Positions 8,621 to 63,620 of a DNA stretch of 64,000 nt are shown piece by piece. The position numbers and the translations under genes are program-made. Under the pieces are notes generated by a model. The model did no database searches. It saw only the letters and a list, made by a program, of their open reading frames with translations, and was not told the DNA's origin. The first letter of the stretch is position 1. The number at the start of each line of letters is the position of its first letter. The DNA comes from Cordylochernes scorpioides. Lineage: Eukaryota; Arthropoda; Arachnida; Pseudoscorpiones; Chernetidae. The stretch is from positions 28,282,801-28,346,800 of the forward strand of contig CP092865.1 of NCBI GenBank assembly GCA_030710605.1. Direction: 5' to 3'.

Positions 8621-8834
8621 CACACTTGGGTCCTCCTGCTACAGTATCTTATTCCGTGGTGCAATGTACAGTACAACTACTGTAAAATATACCTTCATCA
8701 ACCAATAATTTATTTAATTATCGACCTTTCACTGACTTGCTGTCACTCTACTAAGTGGAATTCTTCCTGCTACAGTATTTTATTCCGTTGTTCAATGTAT
8801 TCCTGTACAGTACTACTACTGGAATTGTGTCGCG

Positions 8835-9170
8835 GTCTCACGCAATTCTGGCCTTAACTACCCGTTTCATGATTTTTCAAGATGCCTGAAGGACCAGTTT
8901 TTTTTTTTTTTTTGGTCGTTGAGGTACAGCTTGCACTACACTGATGAGGGCCAACAGCTCGAAACTCGTACGTGGTTAGCTTTTCTTGATTAATCAAGAA
9001 TGGGTATTTGGCCAATTCTGGAATAATTAGAAATCAACGAGAATAGTTGATATTTATTCGAATAGATGGCGCAAGCCATCAGAAACTTTCAGTTGCACGA
9101 TAAGTAGATGCCTTTTTCATAATTTATGCACCTTATCCCAGTACAATATCACATTTGTACTATTTTTTCA
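8835..9170 (+). mobile_element. Hammerhead-bearing element, copy 1
   Basis: Interrupts the tandem array. Shares with 48165-48440 the leader ACTACCCGTTTCATGATTTT, the hammerhead region, CTTGATTAATCAAGAATGGG, the AGATGGCGC box and the end GTTGCACGATAAGTAGATGC. No open frame. Probably a non-autonomous Penelope-like or retrozyme-like retroelement (inference). Confidence 0.7.
8935..8976 (+). ncRNA. Hammerhead ribozyme motif 1 (partly decayed)
   Basis: Core CTGATGA (8941-8947), stem II GGGC-CAACA-GCTC with one G-U pair, GAAA (8961-8964), tiny stem III C-TC-G, U8969, H17=A8970. Stem I ACTACA/CGTGGT has a mismatch at the innermost pair. All invariant core bases are kept; the weak stem I suggests reduced or no activity. 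Confidence 0.65.
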
Positions 9171-10286
9171 CAAATACAGCTTCATCAGCCAGTAATTTAT
9201 TTAATTCTCGATCTTTCAGTAACTCGCTGTCACTCTACTAAGGGGAATTCCCCTGCTACAGTATTTTATTCCGTTGTACAATGTATTCCTGTACAGTAGT
9301 ACTACTGTAAAATATAGCTTCATCAACCAGTAATTTATTTAATTCTCGACCTTTCCCTGACTCGCTGTCACTCTACTAAGGGGAATTCCCCTGCTACAGT
9401 ATTCCGTTGTACAATGTATTCCTGTACAGTACTTCAACTGTAAAATATAGCTTCATCAACCATTAATTTATTTAATTCTCGACGTATGAGTGACTTGCTG
9501 TCACCCTACTAAGGGGAATTCCCCTGCTACACAGTATTCCGTTGTACAATGTATTCCTGTACAGTACTTCAACTGTAAAATATAGCTTCATCAACCATTA
9601 ATTTATTTAATTCTCGACGTATGAGTGACTTGCTGTCACCCTACTAAGGGGAATTCCCCTGCTACACAGTATTCCGTTGTACAATGTATTCCTGTACAGT
9701 ACTTCAACTGTAAAATATAGCTTCATCAACCATTAATTTATTTAATTCTCGACGTATGAGTGACTTGCTGTCACCCTACTAAGGGGAATTCCCCTGCTAC
9801 AGTATTCCGTTGTACAATGTATTCCTGTACAGTAATACTACTGTAAAATATAGCTTCATCAACCAATACTTTATTTAATTCTCGACGTTTGAGTAACTCG
9901 CTGTCACCCTCCACAGGGGAATTCCCCCGACAGCTTGTTCCCTGACAGAGTGACAGCGAATCACTGAAACGTCAGGAGTTAAATAAATTATTGGTTGATG
10001 AATCTATATTTTTTTCCCAGAGAACTTCCAACTAATAAAAGATCATCAATACTACAACTTTAAAAACTACTTGGATTCAAAGTTTACGCGGTTCTTGGCT
10101 TTTTATCCTGTGCCGTCAACATCTTGAGTCTTGATATTTCTGCGGACATGTTTCACTCTACGTCCACATTTCTGTTTTTATGAATTATGAAAGTTGATAT
10201 TATTTTGTTATACGTTTTCTCTAAGCTTATAAAAACAAACTAAAGTTGAACCAATAGAAACACGAATTCAACTTCTACCTTGTGAT

Positions 10287-23590: not shown

Positions 23591-24307
23591 AAAAATCGTT
23601 ATTCCAATATTTGAGGATAAATAGCCAGAGAATATACTTTGTTAAGCAAGAATCCTTTTTATTTAAAATAGAGAATTACAAAGAAGCCTTGACTCATAAC
23701 AAAACGCTTTAAATTTGAACACCTATACACTCTCAGAGAGTTGGTCATACAAGGGAGGTTTTAAAGAGATAGTTATACAACTATATATTTCTACAGAATC
23801 ATTACAAATGTGATAAATGTCTATATGGTGACTAGAGAGAATGCCACATTCCAAATGGCTACTATTCTTAAAAATAATCATTAAAAAGGTCAATTTTTCA
23901 TTCCAGAATACTCAAGTAAGTTTTCATTATAAATCAAAATTTTGAGGTCACCCCTCATCAAATTTTATTAATCGAATTATATTGAACTATATATAAGTGA
24001 TTTATTTTACAGATTCATCCTGAAAAATTCCCAATTTTATTGTATTTTTGTGTCATTATTAATGTGTTCTATTAAATATATAGATTTTAAAAAAATCATA
24101 ATTTCTGAAATGTATTCATTTGTTAAATTAATCTGACACAAATAATAACCATCAAATTTTGTAGTAATAGTTTCCTAATTTCATTTTTTTTTACTCTTAC
24201 TTGTAAATTCTTCTTAGAAAAAACTGTCAGGAACATGAATTTCAGAAATTTAATATATAAAATTACGATTGAGAAAAATTCACAGATTTATATATTAAGA
24301 ACATGTA

Positions 24308-24513
24308 AGGCATATCCTGACCACTAACATGAGAGTTTTTTAGATGGCACACACAGAGCGCCATCTAGTGGAGCAGAAATCAACTAAATGTTTTTTTAAC
24401 ATGTTCCTTGATATTTGGCCAACCTAATTTCTTGAATCAAGAAAGGTCAATCACGAACGCGTTTCAAACTCTGCCATTTAGAAAACACTCATTGCAGTGG
24501 TCAGGATATGCCT
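24308..24513. mobile_element. 206-bp element with perfect 17-bp terminal inverted repeats
   Basis: AGGCATATCCTGACCAC (24308-24324) and its exact complement (24497-24513). Inside are GAGCGCCATCT and, on the minus strand, GAAACGCGTTCGTG, the 3' half of the hammerhead region; the CTGANGA half is lost. A relative of the hammerhead family at 28190-28400 and 49440-49690. Confidence 0.75.
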
Positions 24514-25029
24514 CTAATTTGTTTTTAATATCAACACCTGACCTTTAAAAAAGGTAATATATATTTCAAATGTATGTAATATATAAATATTTGAATATTT
24601 TAAGAAAATGCGAATATTCAAAATTGAAATTATAATAATTTTTAGAAAATATATTTTACAAAGAGTTAGCTCGGAATAAAAATTGAAAACAAATTTCACA
24701 GATCAATCTTCTAATTTGCATTCTGATGTTTCAGCGAAAGCCATTGCGTCTCAAAATTATGAAAAATTAAAATTTTAATGCTTAATTGTAACATATTTCG
24801 GTAAATCAGCAACAAAATATGTAGAACTTGCAACTAAAGGATTCCATATTTCACTTAGGATTCACAACTTAGTAATACGCATTGAAATCATTTTATTCCA
24901 GATAACCAAGAACTTTTTTCTGACACTCAATGGAAGATGAAGACATCCTAAAAATACATTTTCAGAAATACATCAGCGACATCTTAAAACGTCTTCCTAA
25001 TCCCAAAAGTTGACAATTCGGCAATTTCA

Positions 25030-26895: not shown

Positions 26896-28189
26896 ACTGC
26901 GATGTGCTTCGTTTTCATATAGTGGCCTATATGGAAGCCAACCATCTTAGAACGTCATTTTAACAATGTACTGCTCAATTCTCTTTAAATCTACATATTT
27001 TCTATTCTTATACCATTCTATCACATTTTCAAGCCAATCTTTCTTTGATTTTCCACTCTCGTCGATAAGTATATTCCTTCAGTATTGTAAATATGCGACA
27101 TCACGACGAAACTTGGAATTCATGTCCCACCGACTTTTAATTACTTATTTTAGAAGGCTATAGCTCTGTTAAATCTTCTCCGAAATTTCTTCATTTGTCA
27201 TCCTATCATCCCAGTTGATCTTGACGATTCTTCCAGCACAGTGATGCGGTTAGCTGAATAGAATTTAAAGACTTTGCTCCCATTCTTTTATTTGGAAGTC
27301 AGTGATTGGCGTATCCGGGAAAATGTTGCCATTGTTGTAAATACTTTTGCTTGACAACGAAAAAATTTGCCAATAATTTTGTTAGTTTTCCTATGTTATA
27401 TATTTTCTTCCAGCCTCTTATTTATATAGAATGTAATTATACATTTATACATGTCTATAAGCAAAATGGCAATCAAGTTCAAATACAGATTATTGTAGAA
27501 ATCTGACACTATTTGGATCTAGACGATCTTTTTTTGAACCTATTTTAAAATGTGCATTGATTGGTTAGTTTTCCCAAAGGGATAATATAATAAACATCTC
27601 AATTATTTTTATGCTGAATCTATTTTATTATCAGTTGATGATTTAAATTCAGATGTTTTTTTTTTTCACTAAAAACATGCCATGCTACAGATTTTGTAAA
27701 ATAGCGTTTGAGTACCTTTCATTTTAAAACCATAGCTCTACATCATTTCAAGAACAAAAATTTATATTACCAAACGCATGGGGGGGGGGGGGTTGCAATT
27801 GTGACTTCACAAGAACTCTCCAACTAGAGTGGTATAATTTCAATATATTATTAATCATATTGCACATTAGCAATAATACTCCCGTGTGTTAGACCTAATA
27901 AATATTATACTACAAAAGTTTATCTCTATAGTTTTACTAAACCCCAGGAATAACTCCACAAATGCCATTCTATAGAAACAGATGTACAATACATTAGAGA
28001 AACTGGCCTGATTAAACTGGAAATATCGCTTTTTGAAAGAAAGGTTTAATGAAAGGTTGTTACGGTTTAATTTTGACACCTTATAAACATATATTTATTT
28101 TCCTCTTTTATTTTCCAATATTCTTTATATATTGCTTAAAGAAATTGAAAGTTTTTCTTTTCAATATATATATTAAAAATAAGAAAGGC

Positions 28190-28400
28190 ATATCCTGACT
28201 AGAAGCACATGTGCTTTACAGAAGGCAGAGCGCCATCTGGTGGAACAGAAATCAACTAAACATTGATTTAGCCTGTTCCCTGATATTTGGCCAACCCAAT
28301 TTCTTGATAAATCAAGAAAAGCCATCCACGAACGCGTTTCGCGCTGTTGGCGCTCCTCAATGTGGAGTAGGCTGTACCACTGCGACCAAAAAGATATATA
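28190..28400 (-). mobile_element. Hammerhead-family element, decayed copy (minus)
   Basis: Reverse complement of the variant at 49470-49690: starts AAGGCATATCCTGAC, AGCGCCATCTGGTG and TTCCCTGATATTTGGCCAAC. The hammerhead core at about 28333-28366 reads TTGAGGA instead of CTGANGA, with GAAACGCG retained, so it should be inactive. Confidence 0.65.
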
Positions 28401-32738: not shown

Positions 32739-33423
32739 ACCACTGATGAGCCAAGCACTCCTAATATATTTTTTCATCGCAGTAAGGACAGTAGAAGTTT
32801 TTATAATACAATATAATGCGGCTTATGATTGTAGAACGAGGTTTGACAAATTAACCGCAAATGTTTCTTTTGAACGAAAAATAGAAATTTTATTTTAAGG
32901 AGAAATAACGACTATTTTTATCCATAGGGATAAAGTATGAAAGGATGAATTGTGAATAGTAATGATGAACGGAAAAATAAAAGTGTCCAGGGATGGGAAT
33001 CGAACCCACAGTGTTCCGCTTACCGGGCAGATGCCATGTCCACTAGGTCACCCTGGAAATATTTTTCCATTCATAAATATTATATAAAGTTAATTTATAG
33101 CACTAAAGGTAGCCTAGTGGACATGGCATCTGCCCGGTAAACGGAACACAGTGAGTTCGATTCCCATCTCTGGACACTTTTATTTTTCTGTTCATCATTA
33201 CTCTTCACAATTCATCCTTTCATACTTCATCCATAAGGATAGAAATAGTCGTTATTTCTCCTTAAAATAAATTACGATTTTTCGTTCAAAAGAAACATTT
33301 GCGGTGAAATTTGTCAAAACTCGTTCTACGATCATAAGCCGCATTATATTGTATCATAAACAAACTTCTACTGCCCTTACTGCGATGAAAAAATATATTA
33401 GGAGGGCTTGGATCATCAGTGGT
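32739..33423. mobile_element. 685-bp compound palindrome (family B around family C)
   Basis: Outer arms are family B (ACCACTGATGAGCCAAG / CTTGGATCATCAGTGGT). Inner arms are full family C SINEs with tRNA-like heads facing each other across about 60 bp. The left head keeps a good cloverleaf; the right head is diverged in the acceptor stem. Confidence 0.8.
32986..33057 (-). ncRNA. tRNA-like SINE head (family C)
   Basis: Minus strand: acceptor stem TCCAGGG/CCCTGGA, D arm CCTAGTGGACATGG, anticodon stem TCTGC/GCGGA with loop CCGGTAA, T arm GTGGG-TTCGATT-CCCAT. A complete cloverleaf with A-box-like and perfect B-box (GGTTCGATTCCC). Loop position 33 is C rather than T, so it is a SINE promoter, not a working tRNA. 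Confidence 0.7.
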
Positions 33424-33940: not shown

Positions 33941-33944
33941 TTAA

Positions 33945-34240
33945 AAATGACACTTCTTGATCGTAAAAATGAAAGTTGTTGATGGCTTACACCATCTATC
34001 GGGATAAATTTCAACTAATCGTTGATATTTAATTATCCCAGAATATTAACTAAATACCCTTTCTTTATTAATCAAAGTATTTGATCAAATTTCTGGAATA
34101 ATTAAAACCATAGATTAATTAATATTTATTCCGATAGATGGTGCCAACAATCAGCAACTCTCAGTTGAACGATCAGGAAATGATTTTTCTTTATTCATAA
34201 ACTTGATCCCAGTACAATTTCATATTTGTACTATTTAATA
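33945..34240. repeat. Inverted pair of hammerhead-family 3' ends
   Basis: Left (minus) has CACCATCTATCGGGATAAAT and right (plus) TATTCCGATAGATGGTGCC, with ATCAGCAACTCTCAGTTGAA. The ribozyme part is absent from both. Confidence 0.6.
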
Positions 34241-38795: not shown

Positions 38796-39784
38796 CAACA
38801 AACAACAAAAAAGCCTTTATTTAGGGTCACTGACCCTATACAGGATTCACCAGAGGTATGCATAAGAACAAAGCAGTGAGACAAAGGAAATAACGATATA
38901 TACAGAAGAAAAAGAGAAAGAAAAAAAAACAAGAAAAGCAAAAAAATAATAAGAAGAAGAAAGAGGGAAGCAAGAAATCAACACAAAAAGAGTAGCAGTA
39001 AGAAAGTGAGGAGTGAGTATCACTTGGCCTTCTTCTGAGATATGGACTTGTGGAAACCATAAAACGCCGTAGCAATATACTTATTCTGGGTCATATTGTC
39101 AATTATTGATGGAAGTGAAGCACAGAGTTGCCCAGTTTTGAGCATAAGGGTTCTTCTTTCTTCTTTCAGAGCAGAGCAATCACAAATATAGTGAGTGATT
39201 TCATTTTTTAGTTTTGAATTACAGAAGGTACAAGTCGGGTCCTCACCGCAGAGCATCTTGGTGTGGTTTTCTCTAAAAAAACTTGAAAGTATTCTAACTT
39301 GTGCGAGTAGTCTTACAACCGGGAAAGGAAAATCCCCTAAAAGGTATCCCTCCGTCATGAAAGATATGTGAATGTCTTTGTAGTGAGAGTATAGCTTAGA
39401 TTTATCCATTCTTGTAAGGTCGTTTTGTATAGATTGGTCTGCCGCTGTTTTTAAGAGCCCTGTAATCGCGCTCCTCAGCGTTTCAGGATCATCACAGGAA
39501 ACAAGTGCAGGGGATCCATTATTGTTAAGCAGATTGGTGAGCTTTTTAATGAAACCGATGGGTGTGCCCGAGGCATTAGACAGTTCCCGTGTTCTATTAA
39601 AACATATACGTGGCAATCTGTCACTGCTCATATTCAACACCCGCAGCCAATACTTCAGGGTTAATTTTAAGGCTGTTACACTCAATGAGATACGACCGGT
39701 TTCTAATCTGATTAGGTAACCTGGAGTGTATCTGGGCAGATTCAGGAACCTACGGATAAATATGTCTTGTATATTGTCCAGTAA
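38796..39784 (-). mobile_element. 5'-truncated LINE insertion with 14-bp target duplication
   Basis: 989 bp on the minus strand, flanked by AGTATTTTTTAATA (38782-38795 and 39785-39798). The 3' end begins CAACAAACAACAAAAAAGCC (a (GTT)n tail on its own strand). Close sister of the plus-strand LINE at 49894-52883. Confidence 0.93.
39020..39784 (-). pseudogene. LINE ORF2 C-terminal remnant
   Basis: Encodes the last ~250 residues of the ORF2 found at 49895-52651, nearly identical, including CTFCNSKLKNEITHYICDC (CX2C...H...C). It keeps a Cys where the long copy has Phe. Open frame, but no RT domain, so it is a dead fragment. Confidence 0.9.
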
Positions 39785-39869
39785 AGTATTTTTTAATATA
39801 CAAAGAGATAGACCATGATAAACCTAAAAATATCTACAACACATGATAATCATGGAGGGTAGAAGTAGT

Positions 39870-43751: not shown

Positions 43752-43822
43752 CCATCGGTGGTTCAGTGGTAGAATGCTCGCCTGCCACGCGGGCGGTCCG
43801 GGTTCGATTCCCGGCCGATGCA
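43752..43822 (+). tRNA. tRNA-Gly(GCC), possibly slightly decayed
   Basis: 71 nt that match eukaryotic tRNA-Gly(GCC) almost throughout: A box TGGTTCAGTGG (43759-43769), anticodon stem CTCGC/GCGGG with loop CTGCCAC, B box GGTTCGATTCC (43801-43811), acceptor CATCGG/CCGATG, discriminator A. The first base is C instead of G, giving a C-C mismatch at pair 1-72, unusual for a working tRNA. It lies in the intron between segments 9 and 10. Confidence 0.8.
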
Positions 43823-45666: not shown

Positions 45667-45757
45667 GTATCCCAGCACTTCGCTGCTTTATTCTCATCAC
45701 AGCAGAGTCTGTCTTAGGCAACCCTAGTCTTTTAAACAGAAACTTCTTGTATAACGT

Positions 45758-46048
45758 GAAAAAATAGTACAAATGTGATATTGTACTGGGATAAGGTGCA
45801 TAAATTATGAAAAAGGCATCTCCTTATCGTGCAACAATTTTTTTGGTTGTTGAGGTACAGCTTGCACCACGCTGATGAGGGCCAACAGCCCGAAACGCAT
45901 CCGTGGTTAGCTTTTCTTGATTAATCAAGAATGGGTATTTGGCCAATTCTGGAATAATTAAAAATCAACGAGAATAGTTGATATTTATTCTGATAGATGG
46001 CGCGAGCCATCAGCAACTTTCAGTTGCACGATAAGGAGATGCCTTTTT
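45758..46048 (+). mobile_element. Hammerhead-bearing fold-back element with 11-bp target duplication
   Basis: 291 bp flanked by TTGTATAACGT (45747-45757 and 46049-46059). The left end is an inverted copy of the tail: 45811-45835 exactly complements 46023-46047. Contains hammerhead motif 2, CTTGATTAATCAAGAATGGG and the AGATGGCGC box. No protein. Confidence 0.85.
45866..45907 (+). ncRNA. Hammerhead ribozyme motif 2
   Basis: Stem I ACCACG/CGTGGT (6 bp, perfect), CTGATGA, stem II GGGC-CAACA-GCCC, GAAA (45892-45895), U45900, H17=C45901; predicted cut after 45901. The stem III pair C-A is broken, so cleavage as a monomer may be weak. Same strand as the myosin transcript. Confidence 0.75.
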
Positions 46049-46099
46049 TTGTATAACGTCAAATTTATGTGAAACCATGGTTGCTATGTTTTTTTTTTT

Positions 46100-47813: not shown

Positions 47814-48142
47814 TATAATGCGGCTTATGATTGTAGAACGACATTTGAAAATTATTCCACATGTGTTTCTTTTGAACGAAAAATCGAAATTTATTTTGAG
47901 GAGAAATAACGATTATTTCTAACCTTAGGGATGAAGTATGAAAGGATGAATTGTGAAGATTAATGATGAACGGAAAATTAAAGTGTCCAGGGATTTTTCC
48001 GTTTATCATTACTCTTCACAATTCATCCTTTCATACTTTATCCCTAAGGTTAGAAATAATCGTTATTTCTCCTTAAAATAAATTTCGATTTTTCGTTCAA
48101 AAGAAACACATGCGGGATAATTTTCAAATGTCGTTCTACAAT
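47814..48142. repeat. Fold-back of tRNA-SINE family C
   Basis: Arms of about 155 bp (TGTAGAACGACATTTGAAAA / TTTTCAAATGTCGTTCTACA) meeting near 47995. The tRNA-like heads are deleted down to GTGTCCAGGGAT. Confidence 0.75.
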
Positions 48143-48164
48143 ATATTTCTCACATTGGGTCGCC

Positions 48165-48440
48165 TTTTCACGCACTTCTTGGCCTTTAACTACCCGTTTC
48201 ATGATTTTTCAGGGTGTCTGAATAATCAGTTTTTGGTCTTTGAGGTACAGCTTGCACTACGCTGACGAGGGCCAACAGCCCGAAACGCGTACGTGGTTAG
48301 CTTTTATTGATTAATAAAGAATAGGTATATAGCAAATTCTGGAATATTTAAAATTCAACAGAATAGTTGATATTTATTCTGACAGATGGCGCAAACCATC
48401 AGTAACTTTCAGTTGCACGATAAGGAGATGCTTTTTCTTA
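48165..48440 (+). mobile_element. Hammerhead-bearing element, copy 3
   Basis: Leader TTTAACTACCCGTTTCATGA, hammerhead motif 3, AGATGGCGC box, end GTTGCACGATAAGGAGATGC. Aligns with 8835-9115 from leader to end. Confidence 0.75.
48256..48297 (+). ncRNA. Hammerhead ribozyme motif 3
   Basis: Stem I ACTACG/CGTGGT (one T-G pair), CTGACGA, stem II GGGC-CAACA-GCCC, GAAA (48282-48285), stem III C-GC-G, U48290, H17=A48291; cut predicted after 48291. All invariant residues are present; N7 is C. Confidence 0.8.
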
Positions 48441-49439
48441 ATATATATACATGTTTAAAAAATATATTTTTTGAGATATAGGATTACTACTTGCTAATGC
48501 TGATTATTTTTTGGATACATGAGTTTTTTTATGTTATTGTTATTGTAGTCGTGGTAAAAATGAAATTAACTTTGAATCAAAATTTTCTTTAATTGCGTTA
48601 ATAAAGTATTGAACACATAATTTGAGAAAGTACTACCTCACCTGAGGTTTAAAGAAGAAAATAAAATATTACATATTTACATATGTACAAAAATAATTTG
48701 AGCCGGCCAACGGGAAACAACAACAATAGGTGTATATAAGGGAAGCGGCGATATCTGGCGGTTGACTTTACATAGTAGCGTTTGTTCTAGAATTTATAAT
48801 TTTGAAATAAAATATATTTTTATATAACATATATATATATAGTCAAGTAAGTGTAGAATATCTATCTAAATCTAGTTGTAGAGCAAAATTGCCCCTTACT
48901 AAAGATCAGCTAATTGGTAAAAAAAAAAAAAAGATAATTTTGGCGATGAAAACTGTATAGAGGTGTCCATATGTAGAAGTCAGCTAATGGCTCATTAATG
49001 AGCCAAATGAGTTATTAGATCGAATCATTTAGTAGATAAAGGATAAGTTTCTCATAGTAATTTGTTCTCTAATAAATTAACTTATAAAAAAGGTAAATAA
49101 GTACATGAATTGTGTGAGTCACTTATGTCTTGAGGACAAATGAAGGACGTCATTTGTCTTTCATCTCAGTTATCGCATGGAGAGATTTGAAAATACATCT
49201 GGTATACACACATATATTAATATATAAATTAATATAACTATTATTCAATTCTTCGCCCTTTTCTTATGTTACGCTTATATGACGCGTAACTGCCGAAGCT
49301 TCAGCGTGGAATTGTTATAACCCTATGTTGTTTTAAAAAATGAATAAAAAAAACTTTTTTTGATACCTTATTATATTTTTCATCCACTTTTTCTTTAACA
49401 TTTCTTTTTTTTCCTTCTTGATGTATGTATGTATGTATG

Positions 49440-49690
49440 TGTTAAGCGTATTCAGGCAAGTTTGGCCTTAATTATTTTTGGTCGCAGTGGTACAGCCTTC
49501 TCCACGCTGACGAGCGCCAACTGCGCGAAACGCGTTCGTGGATGGCTTTTCTTGATTTATTAAGAAATTGGGTTGATCAAATATCAGGGAACAGACTAAA
49601 TCAATGTTTAGTTGATTTCTCTTTCACCAGATGGCGCTATGCCTTCTGAAAAACACATGTGTTCCTGGTCAGGATATACCTACTTTGTTT
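49440..49690 (+). mobile_element. Hammerhead-bearing element, variant subfamily
   Basis: GGCAAGTTTGGCCTTAATTA leader, hammerhead motif 4, ATATCAGGGAACAGACTAAA, CACCAGATGGCGCTATGCC and GTCAGGATATACC. The tail matches the TIR of 24308-24513. Confidence 0.75.
49501..49542 (+). ncRNA. Hammerhead ribozyme motif 4 (best pairing)
   Basis: Stem I TCCACG/CGTGGA (6 bp), CTGACGA, stem II GCGC-CAACT-GCGC, GAAA (49527-49530), stem III C-GC-G, U49535, H17=U49536; cut predicted after 49536. Relative to motifs 2 and 3, stem II has changed GGC/GCC to CGC/GCG on both sides, a compensatory change. Confidence 0.82.
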
Positions 49691-49894
49691 TTAATATCAA
49701 CACCTGATCTTTTTATTTTTTTTCTATTGTTTTTTCATATGTATGTATAAAATAATAGATATATTATTACTGTTAATTTTCGTTATATAATAGCTTGCTG
49801 TACTGACAACATAGTATCAATTCAATATCAATTTACCTCAAGTGTTAGTTTAATCAGTATTTTTAAAATCTATATATATATATATAAATATACT

Positions 49895-52651
49895 ATAATA
49901 TCATCTCTGTCTAATAAACTTCTTGATTTCCTGGAAGATAATTCTTTGACAATAGTTAATGGAAGATCTAGAGGTGATAAAGATGGAGATTTTACATACA
50001 TATCCGAAAGAGGCTCTTCAACTATTGACTATTGCATACTCTCACAGGGTTCACTACAAATTTTACTGGACTTCAAAGTCGATGACCAACTGTACTCAGA
50101 CCACCATCCTTTGGTTTTAACGATAAAAGGCCAAAACTTCAATGAGAAAAAAACCAAACGGGAAGATTATAATATTACGAGATATAGATGGTCAGCCGAT
50201 GGACTCGCAACGTTTAAAATGAAACTGGAAGAATTGCGGGAAAAAAACATACCAGCCTCCGATGACCTTGTATACACTTTCAATCAGCGAATTTTGGAAG
50301 CAATGTCATCTGCAAAAATAACCTACTCAATTAAGGGCGGCCCCAGGAAATCTAAGCCGTGGTTCGATAAGGACTGCTATGATATGAAAAAACTGGCAAA
50401 AGAAAGTCTGAAGAAATATCGTAAAACAAATAGATTGGAAGACAGAGAATGTTATGCTTCTTCCAGAAAGAAATATCTTGCTTTATTGGATCTAAAAAGG
50501 AAAGGCTTTGATAATGAAAAACAGGAAATACTCAGAAATGCTAAAGACTCAAAGACCTTCTGGAAAACTATTGCGCTCTACAAAAGCACATCTATAATCC
50601 AAGGAGAAATATCTATACAGGACTGGCTGAACTTTTACCGCGAACTAATGACTACAGAGAAAAATTTGAGAATTTGTAATTTACATAATGTGATTTCTCA
50701 GAACGATCCTATATTGGACTCAGAGATAACCAATGCAGACATATACAAGGAGATAGCTGGTTTGAGGAGTAACAAGGCATGCGGGCCCGATGGCATCCCC
50801 AATGAAGTATTAAAAACACTCCCTGATTCGTACATACTGCTGTTGAAACAACTCTACAATAGTGTTATGACGACTGGAAAATACCCAGCAATTTGGACTA
50901 ATTCCACTATACACCCAATCTTTAAAAACGGTTATAAGAACAGCCCCTCCAACTACCGAGGTATTGCACTGATTAGCAATGTATCAAAGCTTTTCACATC
51001 AATCCTAAGATCACGACTGGAGGAATGGGTCGAAGGAAGAAGGGTTATACCCGAAAACCAAGCGGGATTTAGAAAAGAAAGATCATGTATTGACCACATA
51101 TTTACACTAACTACTTTAATCCAACTATCATTAAGAAAAAAGAGGGGAAAACTATATGTCTTTTTTGTCGATCTAAGGAAGGCATTTGATACTGTACCCC
51201 ACTCACTACTTTGGAAAAAACTTTACAACCTAGGCATAAGTTACCAATTCATAAGTACGATCAAAAGTTACTACGAACAAGCAACTATAGCTATCAGATG
51301 GAAGGGATCATTTACGGAAAGTATTAAGATAAACTCGGGAGTCCTCCAGGGAGAACCACTTTCCCCACTGCTATTTATATTATTTATCACGGACTTAATC
51401 GAAATTTATAATAACTCAGACCTGCCGAGTGTAAATTTGCCAGAATTTGGAGATATCCATTTATTGCTGTACGCCGACGACATAGCAATTATAGGTGAGT
51501 CCAGGATAAACCTCCAAAAGAAGATCAAAATACTGAAAGAATATCTCGATGAGAACTTAATGACACTAAATGAGTCCAAGTCAAAGATTATGGTGTTCCG
51601 TAATGGAGGTAAACCCTCAAATAAGGATAGATGGTTCTGGAATGATAAACCCATAGCAATAACTTCAAGATATACATACTTGGGATTCCCTCTGACACCA
51701 ACAATAACAACTACTCACCCGGCAAATTACTTTAAAGGAAAAGCACTTACAGCAATTAACGCCACACACCCAATATTAATAAAATCAAAAGCAAAGTCAA
51801 TAAATTTATCAATCAAACTCTTTGATACAATAGTGAGAGCTGTCCTGATGTATGCCGCTCCATTATGGGCAACAGAGCATAAAGACTTACTGGACAATAT
51901 ACAAGACATATTTATCCGTAGGTTCCTGAATCTGCCCAGATACACTCCAGGTTACCTAATCAGATTAGAAACCGGTCGTATCTCATTGAGTGTAACAGCC
52001 TTAAAATTAACCCTGAAGTATTGGCTGCGGGTGTTGAATATGAGCAGTGACAGATTGCCACGTATATGTTTTAATAGAACACGGGAACTCTCTAATGCTT
52101 CGGGCACACCCATCGGTTTCATTAAAAAGCTCACCAATCTGCTTAACAATAATGGATCCCCTGCACTTGTTTCCTGTGATGACCCTGAAACGCTGAGGAG
52201 CGCGATTACAGGGCTCTTAAAAACAGCGGCAGACCAATCTATACAAAACGACCTTACAAGAATGGATAAATCTAAGCTATACTCTCACTACAAAGACATT
52301 CACATATCTTTCATGACGGAGGGATACCTTTTAGGGGATTTTCCTTTCCCGGTTGTAAGACTACTCGCACAAGTTAGAATACTTTCAAGTTTTTTTAGAG
52401 AAAACCACACCAAGATGCTCTGCGGTGAGGACCCGACTTGTACCTTCTGTAATTCAAAACTACAAAATGAAATCACTCACTATATTTTTGATTGCTCTGC
52501 TCTGAAAGAAGAAAGAAGAACCCTTATGCTCAAAACTGGGCAACTCTGTGCTTCACTTCCATCAATAATTGACAATATGACCCAGAATAAGTATATTGCT
52601 ACGGCGTTTTATGGTTTCCACAAGTCCATATCTCAGAAGAAGGCCAAGTGA
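49895..52651 (+). CDS. LINE ORF2 (endonuclease C-term, reverse transcriptase), 5'-truncated
   Basis: Open from the truncation point to the TGA at 52649, about 918 codons, with no native start. Counting residues from 49946: endonuclease end with STIDYCILS (~30) and SDHHPLVL (~50); RT from KACGPDGIPNEVLK; motif A VDLRKAFDT (Asp ~409); motif B GVLQGEPLSP (~465); motif C YADD (509-512); C-terminal CX2C...H...C from ~831. It would copy LINE RNA at a nicked target. Frame-intact but without the endonuclease N-terminus or ORF1, so not autonomous; RT activity alone is possible. Confidence 0.92.
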   Translation: MISSLSNKLLDFLEDNSLTIVNGRSRGDKDGDFTYISERGSSTIDYCILSQGSLQILLDFKVDDQLYSDHHPLVLTIKGQNFNEKKTKREDYNITRYRWSADGLATFKMKLEELREKNIPASDDLVYTFNQRILEAMSSAKITYSIKGGPRKSKPWFDKDCYDMKKLAKESLKKYRKTNRLEDRECYASSRKKYLALLDLKRKGFDNEKQEILRNAKDSKTFWKTIALYKSTSIIQGEISIQDWLNFYRELMTTEKNLRICNLHNVISQNDPILDSEITNADIYKEIAGLRSNKACGPDGIPNEVLKTLPDSYILLLKQLYNSVMTTGKYPAIWTNSTIHPIFKNGYKNSPSNYRGIALISNVSKLFTSILRSRLEEWVEGRRVIPENQAGFRKERSCIDHIFTLTTLIQLSLRKKRGKLYVFFVDLRKAFDTVPHSLLWKKLYNLGISYQFISTIKSYYEQATIAIRWKGSFTESIKINSGVLQGEPLSPLLFILFITDLIEIYNNSDLPSVNLPEFGDIHLLLYADDIAIIGESRINLQKKIKILKEYLDENLMTLNESKSKIMVFRNGGKPSNKDRWFWNDKPIAITSRYTYLGFPLTPTITTTHPANYFKGKALTAINATHPILIKSKAKSINLSIKLFDTIVRAVLMYAAPLWATEHKDLLDNIQDIFIRRFLNLPRYTPGYLIRLETGRISLSVTALKLTLKYWLRVLNMSSDRLPRICFNRTRELSNASGTPIGFIKKLTNLLNNNGSPALVSCDDPETLRSAITGLLKTAADQSIQNDLTRMDKSKLYSHYKDIHISFMTEGYLLGDFPFPVVRLLAQVRILSSFFRENHTKMLCGEDPTCTFCNSKLQNEITHYIFDCSALKEERRTLMLKTGQLCASLPSIIDNMTQNKYIATAFYGFHKSISQKKAK

Positions 52652-53628: not shown

Positions 53629-56600
53629 GGACTTAATGACCGGTGGCAGACAGACTGGACATGGGTGCTTCTGTTGTTGGTGGTTGTAAGTGAGAGTCCC
53701 GTGGACTTAATGACCGGTGGCAGACAGACTGGACATGGGTGCTTCTGTTGTTGGTGGTTGTAAGTGAGAGTCCCGTGGACTTAATGACCGGTGGCAGACA
53801 GACTGGACATGGGTGCTTCTGTTGTTGGTGGTTGTAAGTGAGAGTCCCGTGGACTTAATGACCGGTGGCAGACAGACTGGACATGGGTGCTTCTGTTGTT
53901 GGTGGTTGTAAGTGAGAGTCCCGTGGACTTAATGACCGGTGGCAGACAGACTGGACATGGGTGCTTCTGTTGTTGGTGGTTGTAAGTGAGAGTCCCGTGG
54001 ACTTAATGACCGGTGGCAGACAGACTGGACATGGGTGCTTCTGTTGTTGGTGGTTGTAAGTGAGAGTCCCGTGGACTTAATGACCGGTGGCAGACAGACT
54101 GGACATGGGTGCTTCCGTTGTTGGTGGTTGTAAGTGAGAGTCCCGTGGACTTAATGACCGGTGGCAGACAGACTGGACATGGGTGCTTCCGTTGTTGGTG
54201 GTTGTAAGTGAGAGTCCCGTGGACTTAATGACCCAGTGGCAGACAGACTGGACATGGGTGCTTCTGTTGTTGGTGTTTGTAAGTGAGAGTCCCGTGGACT
54301 TAATGACCGGTGGCAGACAGACTGGACATGGTGCTTCCGTTGTTGGTGGTTGTAAGTGAGAGTCCCGTGGACTTAATGACCGGTGGCAGACAGACTGGAC
54401 ATGGTGCTTCCGTTGTTGGTGGTTGTAAGTGAGAGTCCCGTGGACTTAATGACCGGTGGCAGACAGACTGGACATGGGTGCTTCCGTTGTTGGTGGTTGT
54501 AAGTGAGAGTCCCGTGGACTTAATGACCGGTGGCAGACAGACTGGACATGGTGCTTCTGTTGTTGGTGGTTGTAAGTGAGAGTCCCGTGGACTTAATGAC
54601 CGGTGGCAGACAGACTGGACATGGTGCTTCTGTTGTTGGTGGTTGTAAGTGAGAGTCCCGTGGACTTAATGACCGGTGGCAGACAGACTGGACATGGTGC
54701 TTCTGTTGTTGGTGTTTGTAAGTGAGAGTCCCGTGGACTTAATGACCGGTGGCAGACAGACTGGACATGGGGGCTTCTGTTGTTGGTGTTTGTAAGTGAG
54801 AGTCCCGTGGACTTAATGACCGGTGGCAGACAGACTGGACATGGGAGCTTCCGTTGTTGGTGGTTGTAAGTGAGAGTCCCGTGGACTTAATGACCGGTGG
54901 CAGACAGACTGGACATGGGGGCTTCCGTTGTTGGTGGTTGTAAGTGAGAGTCCCGTGGACTTAATGACCGGTGGCAGACAGACTGGACATGGTGCTTCTG
55001 TTGTTGGTGGTTGTAAGTGAGAGTCCCGTGGACTTAATGACCGGTGGCAGACAGACTGGACATGGTGCTTCCGTTGTTGGTGGTTGTAAGTGAGAGTCCC
55101 GTGGACTTAATGACCGGTGGCAGACAGACTGGACATGGTGCTTCCGTTGTTGGTGGTTGTAAGTGAGAGTCCCGTGGACTTAATGACCCAGTGGCAGACA
55201 GACTGGACATGGGAGCTTCCGTTGTTGGTGGTTGTAAGTGAGAGTCCCGTGGACTTAATGACCGGTGGCAGACAGACTGGACATGGTGCTTCTGTTGTTG
55301 GTGGTTGTAAGTGAGAGTCCCGTGGACTTAATGACCGGTGGCAGACAGACTGGACATGGTGCTTCCGTTGTTGGTGGTTGTAAGTGAGAGTCCCGTGGAC
55401 TTAATGACCGGTGGCAGACAGACTGGACATGGTGCTTCCGTTGTTGGTGGTTGTAAGTGAGAGTCCCGTGGACTTAATGACCCAGTGGCAGACAGACTGG
55501 ACATGGGAGCTTCCGTTGTTGGTGGTTGTAAGTGAGAGTCCCGTGGACTTAATGACCGGTGGCAGACAGACTGGACATGGTGCTTCTGTTGTTGGTGGTT
55601 GTAAGTGAGAGTCCCGTGGACTTAATGACCGGTGGCAGACAGACTGGACATGGGTGCTTCTGTTGTTGGTGGTTGTAAGTGAGAGTCCCGTGGACTTAAT
55701 GACCGGTGGCAGACAGACTGGACATGGTGCTTCAGTTGTTGGTGGTTGTAAGTGAGAGTCCCGTGGACTTAATGACCGGTGGCAGACAGACTGGACATGG
55801 TGCTTCCGTTGTTGGTGGTTGTAAGTGAGAGTCCCGTGGACTTAATGACCGGTGGCAGACAGACTGGACATGGGAGCTTCCGTTGTTGGTGGTTGTAAGT
55901 GAGAGTCCCGTGGACTTAATGACCGGTGGCAGACAGACTGGACATGGTGCTTCTGTTGTTGGTGGTTGTAAGTGAGAGTCCCGTGGACTTAATGACCGGT
56001 GGCAGACAGACTGGACATGGTGCTTCTGTTGTTGGTGGTTGTAAGTGAGAGTCCCGTGGACTTAATGACCGGTGGCAGACAGACTGGACATGGTGCTTCT
56101 GTTGTTGGTGGTTGTAAGTGAGAGTCCCGTGGACTTAATGACCGGTGGCAGACAGACTGGACATGGGTGCTTCTGTTGTTGGTGGTTGTAAGCGAGAGTC
56201 CCGTGGACTTAATGACCGGTGGCAGACAGACTGGACATGGTGCTTCTGTTGTTGGTGGTTGTAAGTGAGAGTCCCGTGGACTTAATGACCGGTGGCAGAC
56301 AGACTGGACATGGGTGCTTCTGTTGTTGGTGTTTGTAAGTGAGAGTCCCGTGGACTTAATGACCGGTGGCAGACAGACTGGACATGGGTGCTTCTGTTGT
56401 TGGTGTTTGTAAGTGAGAGTCCCGTGGACTTAATGACCGGTGGCAGACAGACTGGACATGGGGGCTTCCGTTGTTGGTGGTTGTAAGTGAGAGTCCCGTG
56501 GACTTAATGACCGGTGGCAGACAGACTGGACATGGGTGCTTCCGTTGTTGGTGGTTGTAAGTGAGAGTCCCGTGGACTTAATGACCGGTGGCAGACAGAC

Positions 56601-59393
56601 TGGACATGGGTGCTTCCATTGTTGGTGGTTGTAAGTGAGAGTCCCGTGGACTTAATGACCGGTGGCAGACAGACTGGACATGGGTGCTTCCGTTGTTGGT
56701 AGTTGTAAGTGAGAGTCCCGTGGACTTAATGACCCAGTGGCAGACAGACTGGACATGGGAGCTTCCGTTGTTGGTGGTTGTAAGTGAGAGTCCCGTGGAC
56801 TTAATGACCGGTGGCAGACAGACTGGACATGGGAGCTTCCGTTGTTGGTGGTTGTAAGTGAGAGTCCCGTGGACTTAATGACCGGTGGCAGACAGACTGG
56901 ACATGGTGCTTCTGTTGTTGGTGGTTGTAAGTGAGAGTCCCGTGGACTTAATGACCGGTGGCAGACAGACTGGACATGGGAGCTTCCGTTGTTGGTGGTT
57001 GTAAGTGAGAGTCCCGTGGACTTAATGACCGGTGGCAGACAGACTGGACATGGGTGCTTCTGTTGTTGGTGGTTGTAAGTGAGAGTCCCGTGGACTTAAT
57101 GACCCAGTGGCAGACAGACTGGACATGGGTGCTTCTGTTGTTGGTGGTTGTAAGTGAGAGTCCCGTGGACTTAATGACCGGTGGCAGACAGACTGGACAT
57201 GGGTGCTTCTGTTGTTGGTGGTTGTAAGCGAGAGTCCCGTGGACTTAATGACCGGTGGCAGACAGACTGGACATGGGTGCTTCTGTTGTTGGTGGTTGTA
57301 AGTGAGAGTCCCGTGGACTTAATGACCGGTGGCAGACAGACTGGACATGGGTGCTTCTGTTGTTGGTGGTTGTAAGTGAGAGTCCCGTGGACTTAATGAC
57401 CGGTGGCAGACAGACTGGACATGGGAGCTTCCGTTGTTGGTGGTTGTAAGCGAGAGTCCCGTGGACTTAATGACCGGTGGCAGACAGACTGGACATGGTG
57501 CTTCTGTTGTTGGTGGTTGTAAGTGAGAGTCCCGTGGACTTAATGACCGGTGGCAGACAGACTGGACATGGTGCTTCTGTTGTTGGTGGTTGTAAGTGAG
57601 AGTCCCGTGGACTTAATGACCGGTGGCAGACAGACTGGACATGGGAGCTTCCGTTGTTGGTGGTTGTAAGTGAGAGTCCCGTGGACTTAATGACCGGTGG
57701 CAGACAGACTGGACATGGGTGCTTCTGTTGTTGGTGGTTGTAAGTGAGAGTCCCGTGGACTTAATGACCGGTGGCAGACAGACTGGACATGGGTGCTTCT
57801 GTTGTTGGTGGTTGTAAGTGAGAGTCCCGTGGACTTAATGACCCAGTGGCAGACAGACTGGACATGGGTGCTTCTGTTGTTGGTGGTTGTAAGTGAGAGT
57901 CCCGTGGACTTAATGACCGGTGGCAGACAGACTGGACATGGGTGCTTCTGTTGTTGGTGGTTGTAAGCGAGAGTCCCGTGGACTTAATGACCGGTGGCAG
58001 ACAGACTGGACATGGGAGCTTCCGTTGTTGGTGGTTGTAAGTGAGAGTCCCGTGGACTTAATGACCGGTGGCAGACAGACTGGACATGGTGCTTCTGTTG
58101 TTGGTGTTTGTAAGTGAGAGTCCCGTGGACTTAATGACCGGTGGCAGACAGACTGGACATGGGTGCTTCTGTTGTTGGTGGTTGTAAGTGAGAGTCCCGT
58201 GGACTTAATGACCGGTGGCAGACAGACTGGACATGGGTGCTTCTGTTGTTGGTGGTTGTAAGTGAGAGTCCCGTGGACTTAATGACCGGTGGCAGACAGA
58301 CTGGACATGGGTGCTTCTGTTGTTGGTGTTTGTAAGTGAGAGTCCCGTGGACTTAATGACCGGTGGCAGACAGACTGGACATGGTGCTTCTGTTGTTGGT
58401 GGTTGTAAGTGAGAGTCCCGTGGACTTAATGACCGGTGGCAGACAGACTGGACATGGGTGCTTCTGTTGTTGGTGGTTGTGAGTGAGAGTCCCGTGGACT
58501 TAATGACCGGTGGCAGACAGACTGGACATGGGGGCTTCCGTTGTTGGTGTTTGTAAGTGAGAGTCCCGTGGACTTAATGACCGGTGGCAGACAGACTGGA
58601 CATGGGGGCTTCCGTTGTTGGTGGTTGTAAGTGAGAGTCCCGTGGACTTAATGACCGGTGGCAGACAGACTGGACATGGGTGCTTCCGTTGTTGGTGGTT
58701 GTAAGTGAGAGTCCCGTGGACTTAATGACCGGTGGCAGACAGACTGGACATGGTGCTTCTGTTGTTGGTGGTTGTAAGTGAGAGTCCCGTGGACTTAATG
58801 ACCGGTGGCAGACAGACTGGACATGGTGCTTCTGTTGTTGGTGGTTGTAAGTGAGAGTCCCGTGGACTTAATGACCGGTGGCAGACAGACTGGACATGGT
58901 GCTTCAGTTGTTGGTGGTTGTAAGTGAGAGTCCCGTGGACTTAATGACCGGTGGCAGACAGACTGGACATGGTGCTTCTGTTGTTGGTGGTTGTAAGTGA
59001 GAGTCCCGTGGACTTAATGACCGGTGGCAGACAGACTGGACATGGTGCTTCTGTTGTTGGTGGTTGTAAGTGAGAGTCCCTTGGACTTAATGACCGGTGG
59101 CAGACAGACTGGACATGGGTGCTTCTGTTGTTGGTGTTTGTAAGTGAGAGTCCCGTGGACTTAATGACCGGTGGCAGACAGACTGGACATGGTGCTTCAG
59201 TTGTTGGTGGTTGTAAGTGAGAGTCCCGTGGACTTAATGACCCAGTGGCAGACAGACTGGACATGGGAGCTTCCGTTGTTGGTGGTTGTACGTGAGAGTC
59301 CCGTGGACTTAATGACCGGTGGCAGACAGACTGGACATGGGAGCTTCCGTTGTTGGTGGTTGTAAGTGAGAGTCCCGTGGACTTAATGACCGG
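53629..59393 (+). repeat. 5.8-kb minisatellite, about 78 units of 73-75 bp
   Basis: Unit: GGACTTAATGACCGGTGGCA, GACAGACTGGACATGGGTGC, TTCTGTTGTTGGTGGTTGTA, AGTGAGAGTCCCGT. Variants: CCGGTGG/CCCAGTGG, GGGTGC/GGTGC/GGGAGC/GGGGGC, TTCT/TTCC, GTGG/GTGT. Very homogeneous. 74 is not a multiple of 3, so open frames across it are chance. Every unit has TTGTAAGTGAG, a near-perfect 5' splice-site word. Confidence 0.98.
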
Positions 59394-59394
59394 A

Positions 59395-59780
59395 CTTGAG
59401 GTGGAAAACAGACTGGCTGTAACTAATTATCACGCTATAGAGAGTACCTTGTAATTACTATGACATAGGTTTACAGAATAAGGTTGATGTTCAGCCATGT
59501 AATTCTGAAGAGAACATTTCGAGTTTAGATAGATTTACTTGGGCCTCTTAAGACCCTAAGATTGGCCTACCCACCGTGATATGAGTATTTTGTTGATCAA
59601 ATTATATATAGAATATTTTAAACCACTATATCTTTGAAACCATGATCTTAATCTGGTATTAAGAGTGTACTCTCCCTTTTATGAGATAATAAAAATAATT
59701 TTTGACTATGGGCTTTCTTTGAGAAACCCTTGTGTATCGAACTATGCCTATATATATAATATACATGATTGTGAATTAAG
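59395..59780. other. Intronic stretch after the minisatellite
   Basis: Begins ACTTGAGGTGG, whose TTGAGGTG is the complement of CACCTCAA just left of the array (53612-53619). Otherwise nothing recognised. Confidence 0.4.
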
Positions 59781-61589: not shown

Positions 61590-61905
61590 TAACTTCAAGT
61601 GTCGTTTTACAATCACAATCCGCAGTGCATTATATTGTAAGTTCCTTTATGTATTATTTACGAACGGAAGAATACGTCCAGGGTAGCCTAGTGGACATGG
61701 CATCTGCCCGGTAAGCGGAACATTGTGGTTTCGATTCCCATCCCTGGACACTTTTATTTTTCCGTTCATCATTACTCTTCATAATTTCACCTTTCATACC
61801 TCATACAAAAAGGTTAGAAATAGTCAATATTTCACCTTGAAATAAATTTAGATTTTTCATTGAAAAGAAACTCATGCGGTATAACTTCAAGTGTCGTTTT
61901 ATAAA
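61590..61905 (+). mobile_element. tRNA-SINE family C, with tRNA-like head
   Basis: A partial tail (61590-61640), then a full SINE: head 61677-61748 and body through TTCATCATTACTCTTCATAA and CTCATGCGGTATAACTTCAA. The only family C copy here with an intact head that is not part of an inverted pair. Confidence 0.78.
61677..61748 (+). ncRNA. tRNA-like SINE head (family C)
   Basis: Acceptor TCCAGGG/CCCTGGA, 7 bp perfect; D arm GCC...GGC; anticodon stem TCTGC/GCGGA, loop CCGGTAA; B box GTTTCGATTCCC (one change). SINE promoter rather than tRNA. Confidence 0.7.
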
Positions 61906-62400: not shown

Positions 62401-62929
62401 TATAGTATATCTATAATATTTATTAAAAGAAAGGCTGCATATTCCGTAAAAATGCTGCAAAAACTAGTAAAACATTGACAGTCTCTACAAACTAGCAAAC
62501 ACTCTGGTCAGTAACAACACCACAGTTTGATAAATTCAGAATTCCCACCCAGAAACAATGGTTTCGAGCTAAGGCACTCTTCAGTTCAGAGTGTTGGGAG
62601 AATCTTAATAATCACTCTCTATTTATACTTAAAACTTCTTTATTAAAAGTATGAAAAACAATGAAGTTAAATTACTATGATAAATTTGAATAAACTCTAA
62701 GAAAACTCATACGTCTCCACACAGATTCTCAACCACACTCACTCAAAGAAAATACCTATATATATACATACACAATCAACACCACAGAATAAATCAGTCC
62801 ACAGATTAATCAAATCATAGAATGAAAATTAATATTTGAAATAATAAATATCAACACAGAGCAGGCCGAATATATGAAGCCGATTATAATCCGACAAACA
62901 ATTTACCCAGAACCATCTGTTTAAGAGCT

Positions 62930-63245: not shown

Positions 63246-63439
63246 TATAATTCGACAAACAGATCTGGTAAAGTGACTATACCAACTCTATGGCCAAAAT
63301 GGAGATAGAAAATTTTCCGGGAGTCAAGTGACCTATTAAAAGAAAGGTTACGGTTCTCTTCAAAATATATACGCCAAAACTATACGCTATCTATTGATTG
63401 TCTCTGCAAAGTAACGTACTTTATATATCGAAAAGATAG

Positions 63440-63620
63440 AGGCTGCCTGGCCGGCATTCATAGTTCTTCAAATTAAAGATACTTCGGCCTGTAAATATTT
63501 TTATTATATCGACGTTTCGACAAAAATCTTCTGTTCGCTCCTGACGAGGACAAAAGAAATTGTCGAAACGTCGAGATAATAAAAAGATTTACCGGCCGAA
63601 GTATTTTTAATTTGAAGTAT
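63440..63620. mobile_element. Fold-back with near-hammerhead core (family H)
   Basis: Arms of about 55 bp: ATACTTCGGCCTGTAAATAT ... CGACGTTTCGACAA and the complement TTGTCGAAACGTCGAG ... GGCCGAAGTA. The centre reads CTCCTGACGAGGACAAAAGA, then AATTGTCGAAACGTC: CTGACGA, stem II GACAA/TTGTC, GAAA and GTC, with one unpaired extra G at the base of stem II. Confidence 0.7.

What the first reader, a model, noticed from the sequence alone, without database searches (positions are those of the whole stretch)
49501..49542. Hammerhead ribozyme with compensatory stem II change
All invariant hammerhead positions are present (CTGANGA, GAAA, U16.1, non-G at 17) with 6-bp stem I and 4-bp stem II. Compared with 48256-48297, stem II changed GGC/GCC to CGC/GCG on both sides, which argues for selection on RNA structure when the element was active. 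Known: hammerheads occur in Penelope-like elements and retrozymes. The element sits in the sense strand of a host intron.
Basis: partly seen in the sequence, partly recalled or inferred. Interest (0 to 1): 0.78.

Follow-up and report, generated by a model that had tools for sequence, protein, structure and literature searches.

The report
Retrozyme inserted by Penelope-type machinery
The sequence is a hammerhead ribozyme inside a tiny, very abundant jumping element (a retrozyme), and the scars its copies leave in this genome resemble those of a Penelope-type retroelement, pointing to the enzyme that probably moves it.

Summary
In detail: 49494-49547 is a complete type I hammerhead, and its base-pair swap against 48249-48302 is real. 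The two subfamilies (A, B) differ at 9 of 54 positions: 6 form three base pairs changed on both sides, 3 are unpaired. Rfam only nearly recognises it (Hammerhead_HH9, 25.3 bits, cut-off 52). The element is a non-autonomous non-LTR retrozyme: a ~338-350-bp unit, sometimes tandem, whose circularised RNA is predicted to fold into a rod (z -7.6, -8.0). The 2.62-Gb genome holds 21,563 exact A/B cores (0 for the pattern read backwards) and 8,425 of a third family. The new part is the insertion signature. 3' ends fall in two groups (80 of 101 ends), 5' ends vary, and copies often stand head-to-head; 16 of 18 classifiable pairs have one arm ending in each group, and 5 of 23 lie within repeats of 10 bp or more. 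Penelope-like elements (PLEs) here do the same (5 of 5 pairs); a LINE does not at short range. I infer that PLE protein inserts these retrozymes by priming on both DNA strands. Cleavage, circles and the 'host intron' were not shown.

The parts
49437..49742 (+). family A retrozyme copy that holds the finding; starts at unit position 342/1, lacks about unit positions 34-73, long ('T') 3' end
   Evidence: mapping to the 343-bp unit, 92.4% for the main piece
49494..49547 (+). type I hammerhead with extended stem I; predicted cut after 49536
49428..49438 (.). left copy of possible target duplication TATGTATGTAT (in a TATG microsatellite, so ambiguous)
49738..49748 (.). right copy of possible target duplication TATGTATGTAT
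48146..48446 (+). family B retrozyme copy, hammerhead 48249-48302, short ('S') 3' end
45753..46048 (.). family B head-to-head insertion: left arm minus (T end), right arm plus (S end) with hammerhead 45859-45912; flanked by TTGTATAACGT at 45747-45757 and 46049-46059
8824..9172 (+). full-length family B copy, hammerhead 8928-8981
28170..28392 (-). family A copy, core decayed (TTGAGGA), hammerhead region 28320-28373
33944..34236 (.). old family B head-to-head pair (S and T ends)
24292..24543 (.). old family A head-to-head pair (both ends classed S; an exception)
63427..63617 (.). PLE 3'-end fragments in head-to-head arrangement (T and S ends), same layout as the retrozymes

Best explanation
The finding is a type I hammerhead in a non-LTR retrozyme. 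Inferred life cycle: tandem or read-through transcripts are cut by the hammerhead, probably as dimers, because helix III is one base pair with a self-complementary CGCG loop (ACGCGU can pair between two copies). Monomers fold into a rod and may be closed into circles by a host ligase. PLE protein then inserts the RNA. It cuts AT-rich DNA and starts copying at one of two sites near the unit's 3' end: S, in the loop of a 7-bp stem-loop, or T, about 40-55 nt further on. When both DNA strands prime, usually one from S and one from T, the two copies meet head-to-head within one target duplication of about 8-13 bp; when one primes, a single copy with a variable 5' end results. Shown here: motif, units, copy numbers, end groups, head-to-head bias, an excess of flanking repeats, the same layout in resident PLEs. 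Inferred: cleavage, circles, PLE protein as the agent, the order of steps.
For: Retrozyme: five B hammerheads in tandem at 338-bp spacing, 347-350 for A, 319 for C; circular folds z -7.6/-8.0, 0 of 100 shuffles as stable. PLE machinery: A 3' ends 35 at 298-304 and 17 at 339-343 of 69; B 15 at 281-291 and 13 at 329-338 of 32; 5' ends scattered. Inverted neighbours, head-to-head against tail-to-tail: first 100 exact A/B cores 7 and 1; first 100 C cores 9 and 0; fetched loci and window 23 and 5; first 100 PLE minimal hammerheads, within 6 kb, 24 and 0; 146 GIY-YIG hits, within 20 kb, 11 and 0. LINE, first 100 places: 0 and 0 within 1 kb, 2 and 0 within 6 kb, 2 and 2 within 20 kb. Mixed S/T ends: 16 of 18 retrozyme pairs, 5 of 5 PLE pairs. 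Shared flanking words of 10 bp or more at 14 of 64 inserts, against a mean of 2.4 and maximum of 8 in 200 re-pairings. The PLE hammerhead lies 390-436 bp downstream of 7 of 19 GIY-YIG hits on C1. Papers: PMC11167929 (parts 1-2 of 4: the anole PLE protein cuts and extends both strands and starts copying at two adjacent sites); PMC3846280 (passages: a tail on one of the inverted pLTRs, head-to-head most frequent).
Against: Tail-to-tail neighbours exist: 5 in the fetched loci, 1 in the listing. 21 of 101 3' ends lie outside the two groups. Of 23 head-to-head pairs 5 have an unclassed end and 2 are S/S; S and T limits were set after seeing the ends, so the p of 0.0003 is indicative only. Only 5 of the 23 head-to-head inserts have flanking repeats of 10 bp or more, and flanks are AT-rich. 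Two of the five PLE pairs look like copies of one event. L002-L030 were chosen for likeness to family A. 5' ends do not pile up exactly at the ribozyme cut (3 of 73 non-focal ends within 5 nt), but 17 of 73 lie 3-28 nt past it against 4 in the mirror interval, so the template (cleaved, circular or uncut) is not settled. Column-shuffled alignments reach a mean of 7.2 and a maximum of 13 both-sided pairs, so the 12 seen between A and B are not exceptional alone. No sequence identity between retrozyme and PLE 3' modules beyond the stem-loop layout was established. Rfam scores are below cut-off.
Confidence: 0.73

Rival explanations
1. It is a solo pLTR or a deleted copy of an autonomous PLE rather than a retrozyme.
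For: PLE ends here also carry a hammerhead, occur inverted and end at two sites; PLEs are reported in tandem (PMC11167929).
Against: The one PLE sampled carries a different hammerhead and 3' region. Tandem B units have no PLE coding sequence between them, and A and B have only short ORFs (88 and 44 aa in dimers).
Confidence: 0.13
2. The units are moved by a LINE, as SINEs are, and the head-to-head pairs come from twin priming or later rearrangement.
For: LINEs are present and one lies beside the finding; among 100 listed LINE places there are 2 head-to-head neighbours within 6 kb.
Against: No inverted LINE neighbours within 1 kb among those 100. Retrozyme pairs have two different 3' ends, as in PLEs, and the clearest lie within one flanking repeat.
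Confidence: 0.09
3. It is a DNA-transposon-like foldback element (MITE) that happens to contain a ribozyme; the inverted arms are terminal repeats.
For: The unit has internal inverted arms and many insertions have inverted ends.
Against: The internal arms are the two sides of the predicted RNA rod. 5' ends are variable, single copies and tandem units occur, and arms differ in their 3' end.
Confidence: 0.03
4. A decayed satellite with a hammerhead look-alike and no function.
For: Individual copies, including this one, may be dead; low Rfam scores; isolated folds not unusually stable.
Against: Over 20,000 exact cores in two subfamilies with three compensated base pairs, dispersed, with an excess of flanking repeats.
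Confidence: 0.02

Closest known systems
Metazoan non-LTR retrozymes (Cervera and de la Pena 2020, PMC7229834, parts 1-4 of 6 read), e.g. the axolotl family with HHR_Amex1
   Same: Type I hammerhead, low-GC units of a few hundred bp found in tandem, highly self-paired predicted circle, very high copy number (126,247 motifs in axolotl in that paper); helix III a single pair with a palindromic tetraloop, as they describe for HHR_Amex1.
   Different: Three families in one genome; among the listed and fetched copies many stand alone or head-to-head with two 3' ends, which the parts of the paper read do not describe.
Penelope-like elements with minimal type I hammerheads (PMC3846280 passages; PMC11167929 parts 1-2 of 4; PMC7761336 passages)
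   Same: Head-to-head insertions, optional 3' tail on one arm, target duplications of about 8-10 bp (PMC3846280), AT-rich targets, a hammerhead.
   Different: No RT/endonuclease reading frame; hammerhead with full stem II and a two-part stem I instead of the minimal form seen in L052.
Rfam RF02275 Hammerhead_HH9
   Same: Best covariance match of both subfamilies (25.3 and 26.5 bits).
   Different: Well below the gathering score of 52; helix III shorter than the model's.

Membership tests
Type I hammerhead ribozyme | Core CUGANGA / GAAA, A15.1-U16.1, H17 not G, helix I open-ended | tested here: met
   49494-49547 by reading; A15.1-U16.1 in 33 of 33 distinct copies at least 40/54 like A or B
Type I hammerhead ribozyme | Rfam covariance model at gathering score | tested here: not met
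   0 hammerhead hits at gathering in the window; RF02275 25.3 bits, cut-off 52
Type I hammerhead ribozyme | Self-cleavage after H17 | not testable with these tools
   needs in vitro transcription
Metazoan non-LTR retrozyme | Tandem units of 150-450 bp with a type I hammerhead each | tested here: met
   L051: 338-bp spacing; 347-350 for A, 319 for C; most listed copies are not tandem (10 same-strand neighbours within 1 kb among 100 listed)
Metazoan non-LTR retrozyme | Low GC, no protein coding | tested here: met
   GC A 0.417, B 0.411, C 0.498 (at the limit); longest ATG ORF 88 and 44 aa in dimers of A and B; C not tested for ORFs
Metazoan non-LTR retrozyme | Target duplications longer than the 4 bp of plant LTR retrozymes | tested here: met
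   10 bp or more at 14 of 64 inserts, re-paired mean 2.4, maximum 8
Metazoan non-LTR retrozyme | Highly self-paired circular RNA | tested here: met
   prediction only: z -7.6 and -8.0
Metazoan non-LTR retrozyme | Expressed as circular RNA in tissues | not testable with these tools
   no RNA data at hand
Metazoan non-LTR retrozyme | Absence of LTR, primer binding site and polypurine tract | not tested
   no formal search made
Penelope-like element (as identity of this element) | RT plus GIY-YIG reading frame within the element | tested here: not met
   tandem B units have no room for it; only short ORFs in A and B
Penelope-type insertion signature | Head-to-head copies with a 3' tail on one arm and a target duplication | tested here: met
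   bias and end classes; flanking repeats of 10 bp or more at 5 of 23 head-to-head inserts; same in resident PLE ends:

The most novel reading that the evidence does not exclude
Animal retrozymes are to PLEs what SINEs are to LINEs: parasites that present a mimic of the PLE start module (a stem-loop with one start site in its loop and a second some 30-55 nt on). PLE protein acting as a dimer uses both sites at once, one per DNA strand, so that each double-ended insertion is born as a head-to-head pair with unequal ends.
Probability: 0.6. Interest if true: 0.75.

Novelty: new member of a known kind. Interest (0 to 1): 0.58.

Why it matters
Which enzyme moves animal retrozymes is left open in the papers seen, with PLEs named as a strong or likely candidate because both carry hammerheads, occur in tandem and co-occur (PMC7229834, part 4; PMC7761336, passages). 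A shared, detailed insertion scar within one genome, with start sites located to a few nucleotides, turns that guess into a biochemical test. It also gives a genomic counterpart to the both-strand priming seen for a purified PLE protein (PMC11167929). The listings of searches showed no paper on head-to-head or two-ended retrozyme insertions; they cover only the open library held here, and in the whole session I read parts or passages of four papers.

Tried and rejected
MITE/foldback reading: suggested by the first alignments, dropped once the inverted arms matched the predicted RNA rod and the 5' ends proved variable. PLE identity: dropped for lack of coding room and because the sampled PLE has another hammerhead. 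Cleaved linear monomer as sole template: no pile-up exactly at the cut (3 of 73), but an excess 3-28 nt past it (17 against 4), left open. Host intron: six ORFs against Pfam gave only a LINE; one against PDB sequences gave three hits at E 0.012 or worse, over a stretch that I read as proline-rich. RF00008 genome search: uninformative, no control rang. A gapped hammerhead pattern ending in GTC: none in the window. Family C ends: too few copies (one S-like end at 280, T at 311-321). In one search, 22 of 39 rows, all in L046, are a minisatellite beside the T end and were left out of the pair and end counts. Pairs with an unclassed end were left out of the 18 (5 of 23 pairs).

Full report
The motif. 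Positions 49494-49547 read AGCC UUC UCCACG CUGACGA GCGC CAACU GCGC GAA A CGCG U U CGUGGA U GGCU. This is a complete type I hammerhead with a two-part stem I, a 4-bp stem II, and a helix III of one pair (A15.1-U16.1) capped by the self-complementary CGCG. A pattern for it hits five places in the window at up to three mismatches, none in 100 shuffles. Rfam at gathering score sees none. With a relaxed threshold the finding matches Hammerhead_HH9 at 25.3 bits and each of five tandem B copies at 26.5 bits, against a cut-off of 52. The short helix III probably costs the score (inference). Isolated folds are not unusually stable and compete with other pairings. Motif numbering and the core rules are recalled, in line with PMC7229834.

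Compensatory change. In the fetched sequence, 49 ungapped copies at least 40/54 like A or B (33 distinct) fall into two subfamilies. The A and B reference strings differ at 9 of 54 positions; 6 of these form three base pairs changed on both sides (distal stem I, outer pair of inner stem I, stem II), and the other 3 are unpaired (internal loop, N7, H17). These are two lineages, so each change counts once. Over the whole A and B units, a consensus circular fold of 81 pairs has 59 unchanged, 10 changed on one side, 12 on both sides and none broken (the fold is chosen to fit both); slid versions give 0 or 1 both-sided and 49-60 broken. Column-shuffled, refolded alignments gave a mean of 7.2 and a maximum of 13 both-sided pairs, so that count alone is not exceptional, but their mean energy was -18.9 against -67.6.

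The element. The window lies in an unnamed 2.62-Gb genome. The A/B core has 10,739 + 10,824 exact matches, 0 for the reversed pattern; the finding's own variant (loop CAACU) has 20; a third family, C, has 4,186 + 4,239. Neighbours among the first 100 listed places show tandem spacing of 338 (B), 347-350 (A) and 319 bp (C). L051 shows five B hammerheads at 338-bp spacing. In 20 stretches of 10 kb at round-number places 18 A/B segments were found, and 15 in the window, which extrapolates to the order of 10^5 segments in the genome, counting arms and old pieces. A (typed consensus) and B are 343 and 338 bp, GC 0.417 and 0.411, with short ORFs. Their circular monomers fold at -112 and -114 kcal/mol, z -7.6 and -8.0, 0 of 100 shuffles as stable. 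This fits the metazoan non-LTR retrozymes of Cervera and de la Pena (PMC7229834, parts 1-4 of 6 read), in particular the weak helix III with palindromic tetraloop described there for axolotl, whose ribozymes cleaved better as dimers.

How it moves. All held copies were mapped on the units (102 segments; L001 left out as part of the window). Of 69 A 3' ends, 35 lie at 298-304, 17 at 339-343 and 17 elsewhere; of 32 B ends, 15 lie at 281-291, 13 at 329-338 and 4 elsewhere. 5' ends are scattered. The first group (S) lies in the loop of a stem-loop whose 7-bp stem differs between A (GGTCAGG/CCTGACC) and B (GATAAGG/CCTTATC) yet pairs in both; the second (T) lies some 40-55 nt further on. Inverted neighbours are mostly head-to-head: 7 against 1 in the first 100 exact A/B cores, 9 against 0 in the first 100 of family C, 23 against 5 in the fetched loci and window (17 against 5 in L002-L030, 6 against 0 in the round-number stretches and window). 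Of 23 head-to-head pairs with a gap up to 60 nt, 18 could be classed at both ends, and 16 of these have one S and one T arm; 2 are S/S and none T/T; the class limits were set after seeing the ends. Over 64 inserts, shared flanking words of 10 bp or more occur at 14 against a mean of 2.4 and a maximum of 8 in 200 re-pairings. Among the 23 inserts that contain a head-to-head junction, 5 have such words, for example TTGTATAACGT around 45753-46048 in the window and CATATGTTATTGT around L028:690-923; many of the others have AT-rich words of 5-9 bp and some none. The clearest pairs are therefore single insertions.

Same scar in PLEs. The genome is rich in GIY-YIG domains (146 of 150 scored candidates, of 17,015). 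One PLE locus (L052) has, after its ORF, a minimal hammerhead with 1,482 exact copies. On C1 it lies 390-436 bp downstream of 7 of 19 GIY-YIG hits on the same strand and 1,712 bp downstream of one more; the other 11 have no same-strand exact match downstream within 6 kb. Opposite-strand PLE neighbours are all head-to-head: 24 of 24 within 6 kb for the first 100 minimal hammerheads, 11 of 11 within 20 kb for GIY-YIG. In the held sequence, 5 head-to-head pairs of this PLE end were found, all with one end at 541-547 and one at 580-583 of L052; 4 of the 5 have 10-12-bp flanking repeats by eye; two, in L036, look like one event; 22 minisatellite rows were left out. Here too the first end lies in the loop of a stem-loop. 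The LINE beside the finding shows no inverted neighbours within 1 kb, two head-to-head within 6 kb, and two of each kind within 20 kb among 100 places.

Link to the literature. The PLE features found here are known: the tail on one of the inverted pLTRs and head-to-head as the most frequent layout (PMC3846280, passages); cutting and extending of both strands and two adjacent start sites for the anole PLE protein, with hammerhead mutants still inserting in vitro (PMC11167929, parts 1-2 of 4). That PLEs may move retrozymes is a stated conjecture (PMC7229834; PMC7761336 passages). The listings of searches showed no report of these insertion features in retrozymes. On the template: 3 of 73 non-focal 5' ends lie within 5 nt of the ribozyme cut, but 17 of 73 lie 3-28 nt past it against 4 in the mirror interval; this leaves room for cleaved, circular and uncut RNA.

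Limits. No RNA, no activity, no species name. Loci L002-L030 were chosen by similarity to family A. Only the first 100 places per pattern were visible. The host-intron claim could not be supported. The stem-loop mimicry rests on layout, not on sequence identity.

Noticed in passing
L034:8279-8589; decayed pieces at window 62514-62585 (-) and 63303-63397 (-): Third retrozyme family (C), 319-bp tandem spacing, 8,425 exact cores, with a longer helix III (ACCATGGU) and the same head-to-head bias (9 of 9 inverted neighbours within 1 kb among 100 listed).
   Followed up: partly
window 49751-52651 (+) and 39020-39823 (-): LINE reading frame with reverse transcriptase domain (RVT_1, E 7.7e-37); a 34-base piece of it has 4,969 exact copies in the genome.
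   Followed up: partly
window 47840-48140: Long near-perfect palindrome just upstream of the family B copy, read by eye from the sequence.
   Followed up: no
window 32985-33057 (-), 61677-61749 (+): Two tRNA-like matches very similar to each other, possibly heads of a tRNA-derived SINE; a third tRNA match is at 43752-43822 (+).
   Followed up: no
window 55401-59426 (-): GC-rich stretch with strong GC skew and repetitive open frames, probably a minisatellite.
   Followed up: no
L046:6328-7329, L052:600-1001, L034:8700-9033: Minisatellite-like arrays; those in L052 and L034 lie next to the 3' (T) end of a PLE and a family C copy. Whether arrays grow from these ends was not examined.
   Followed up: no
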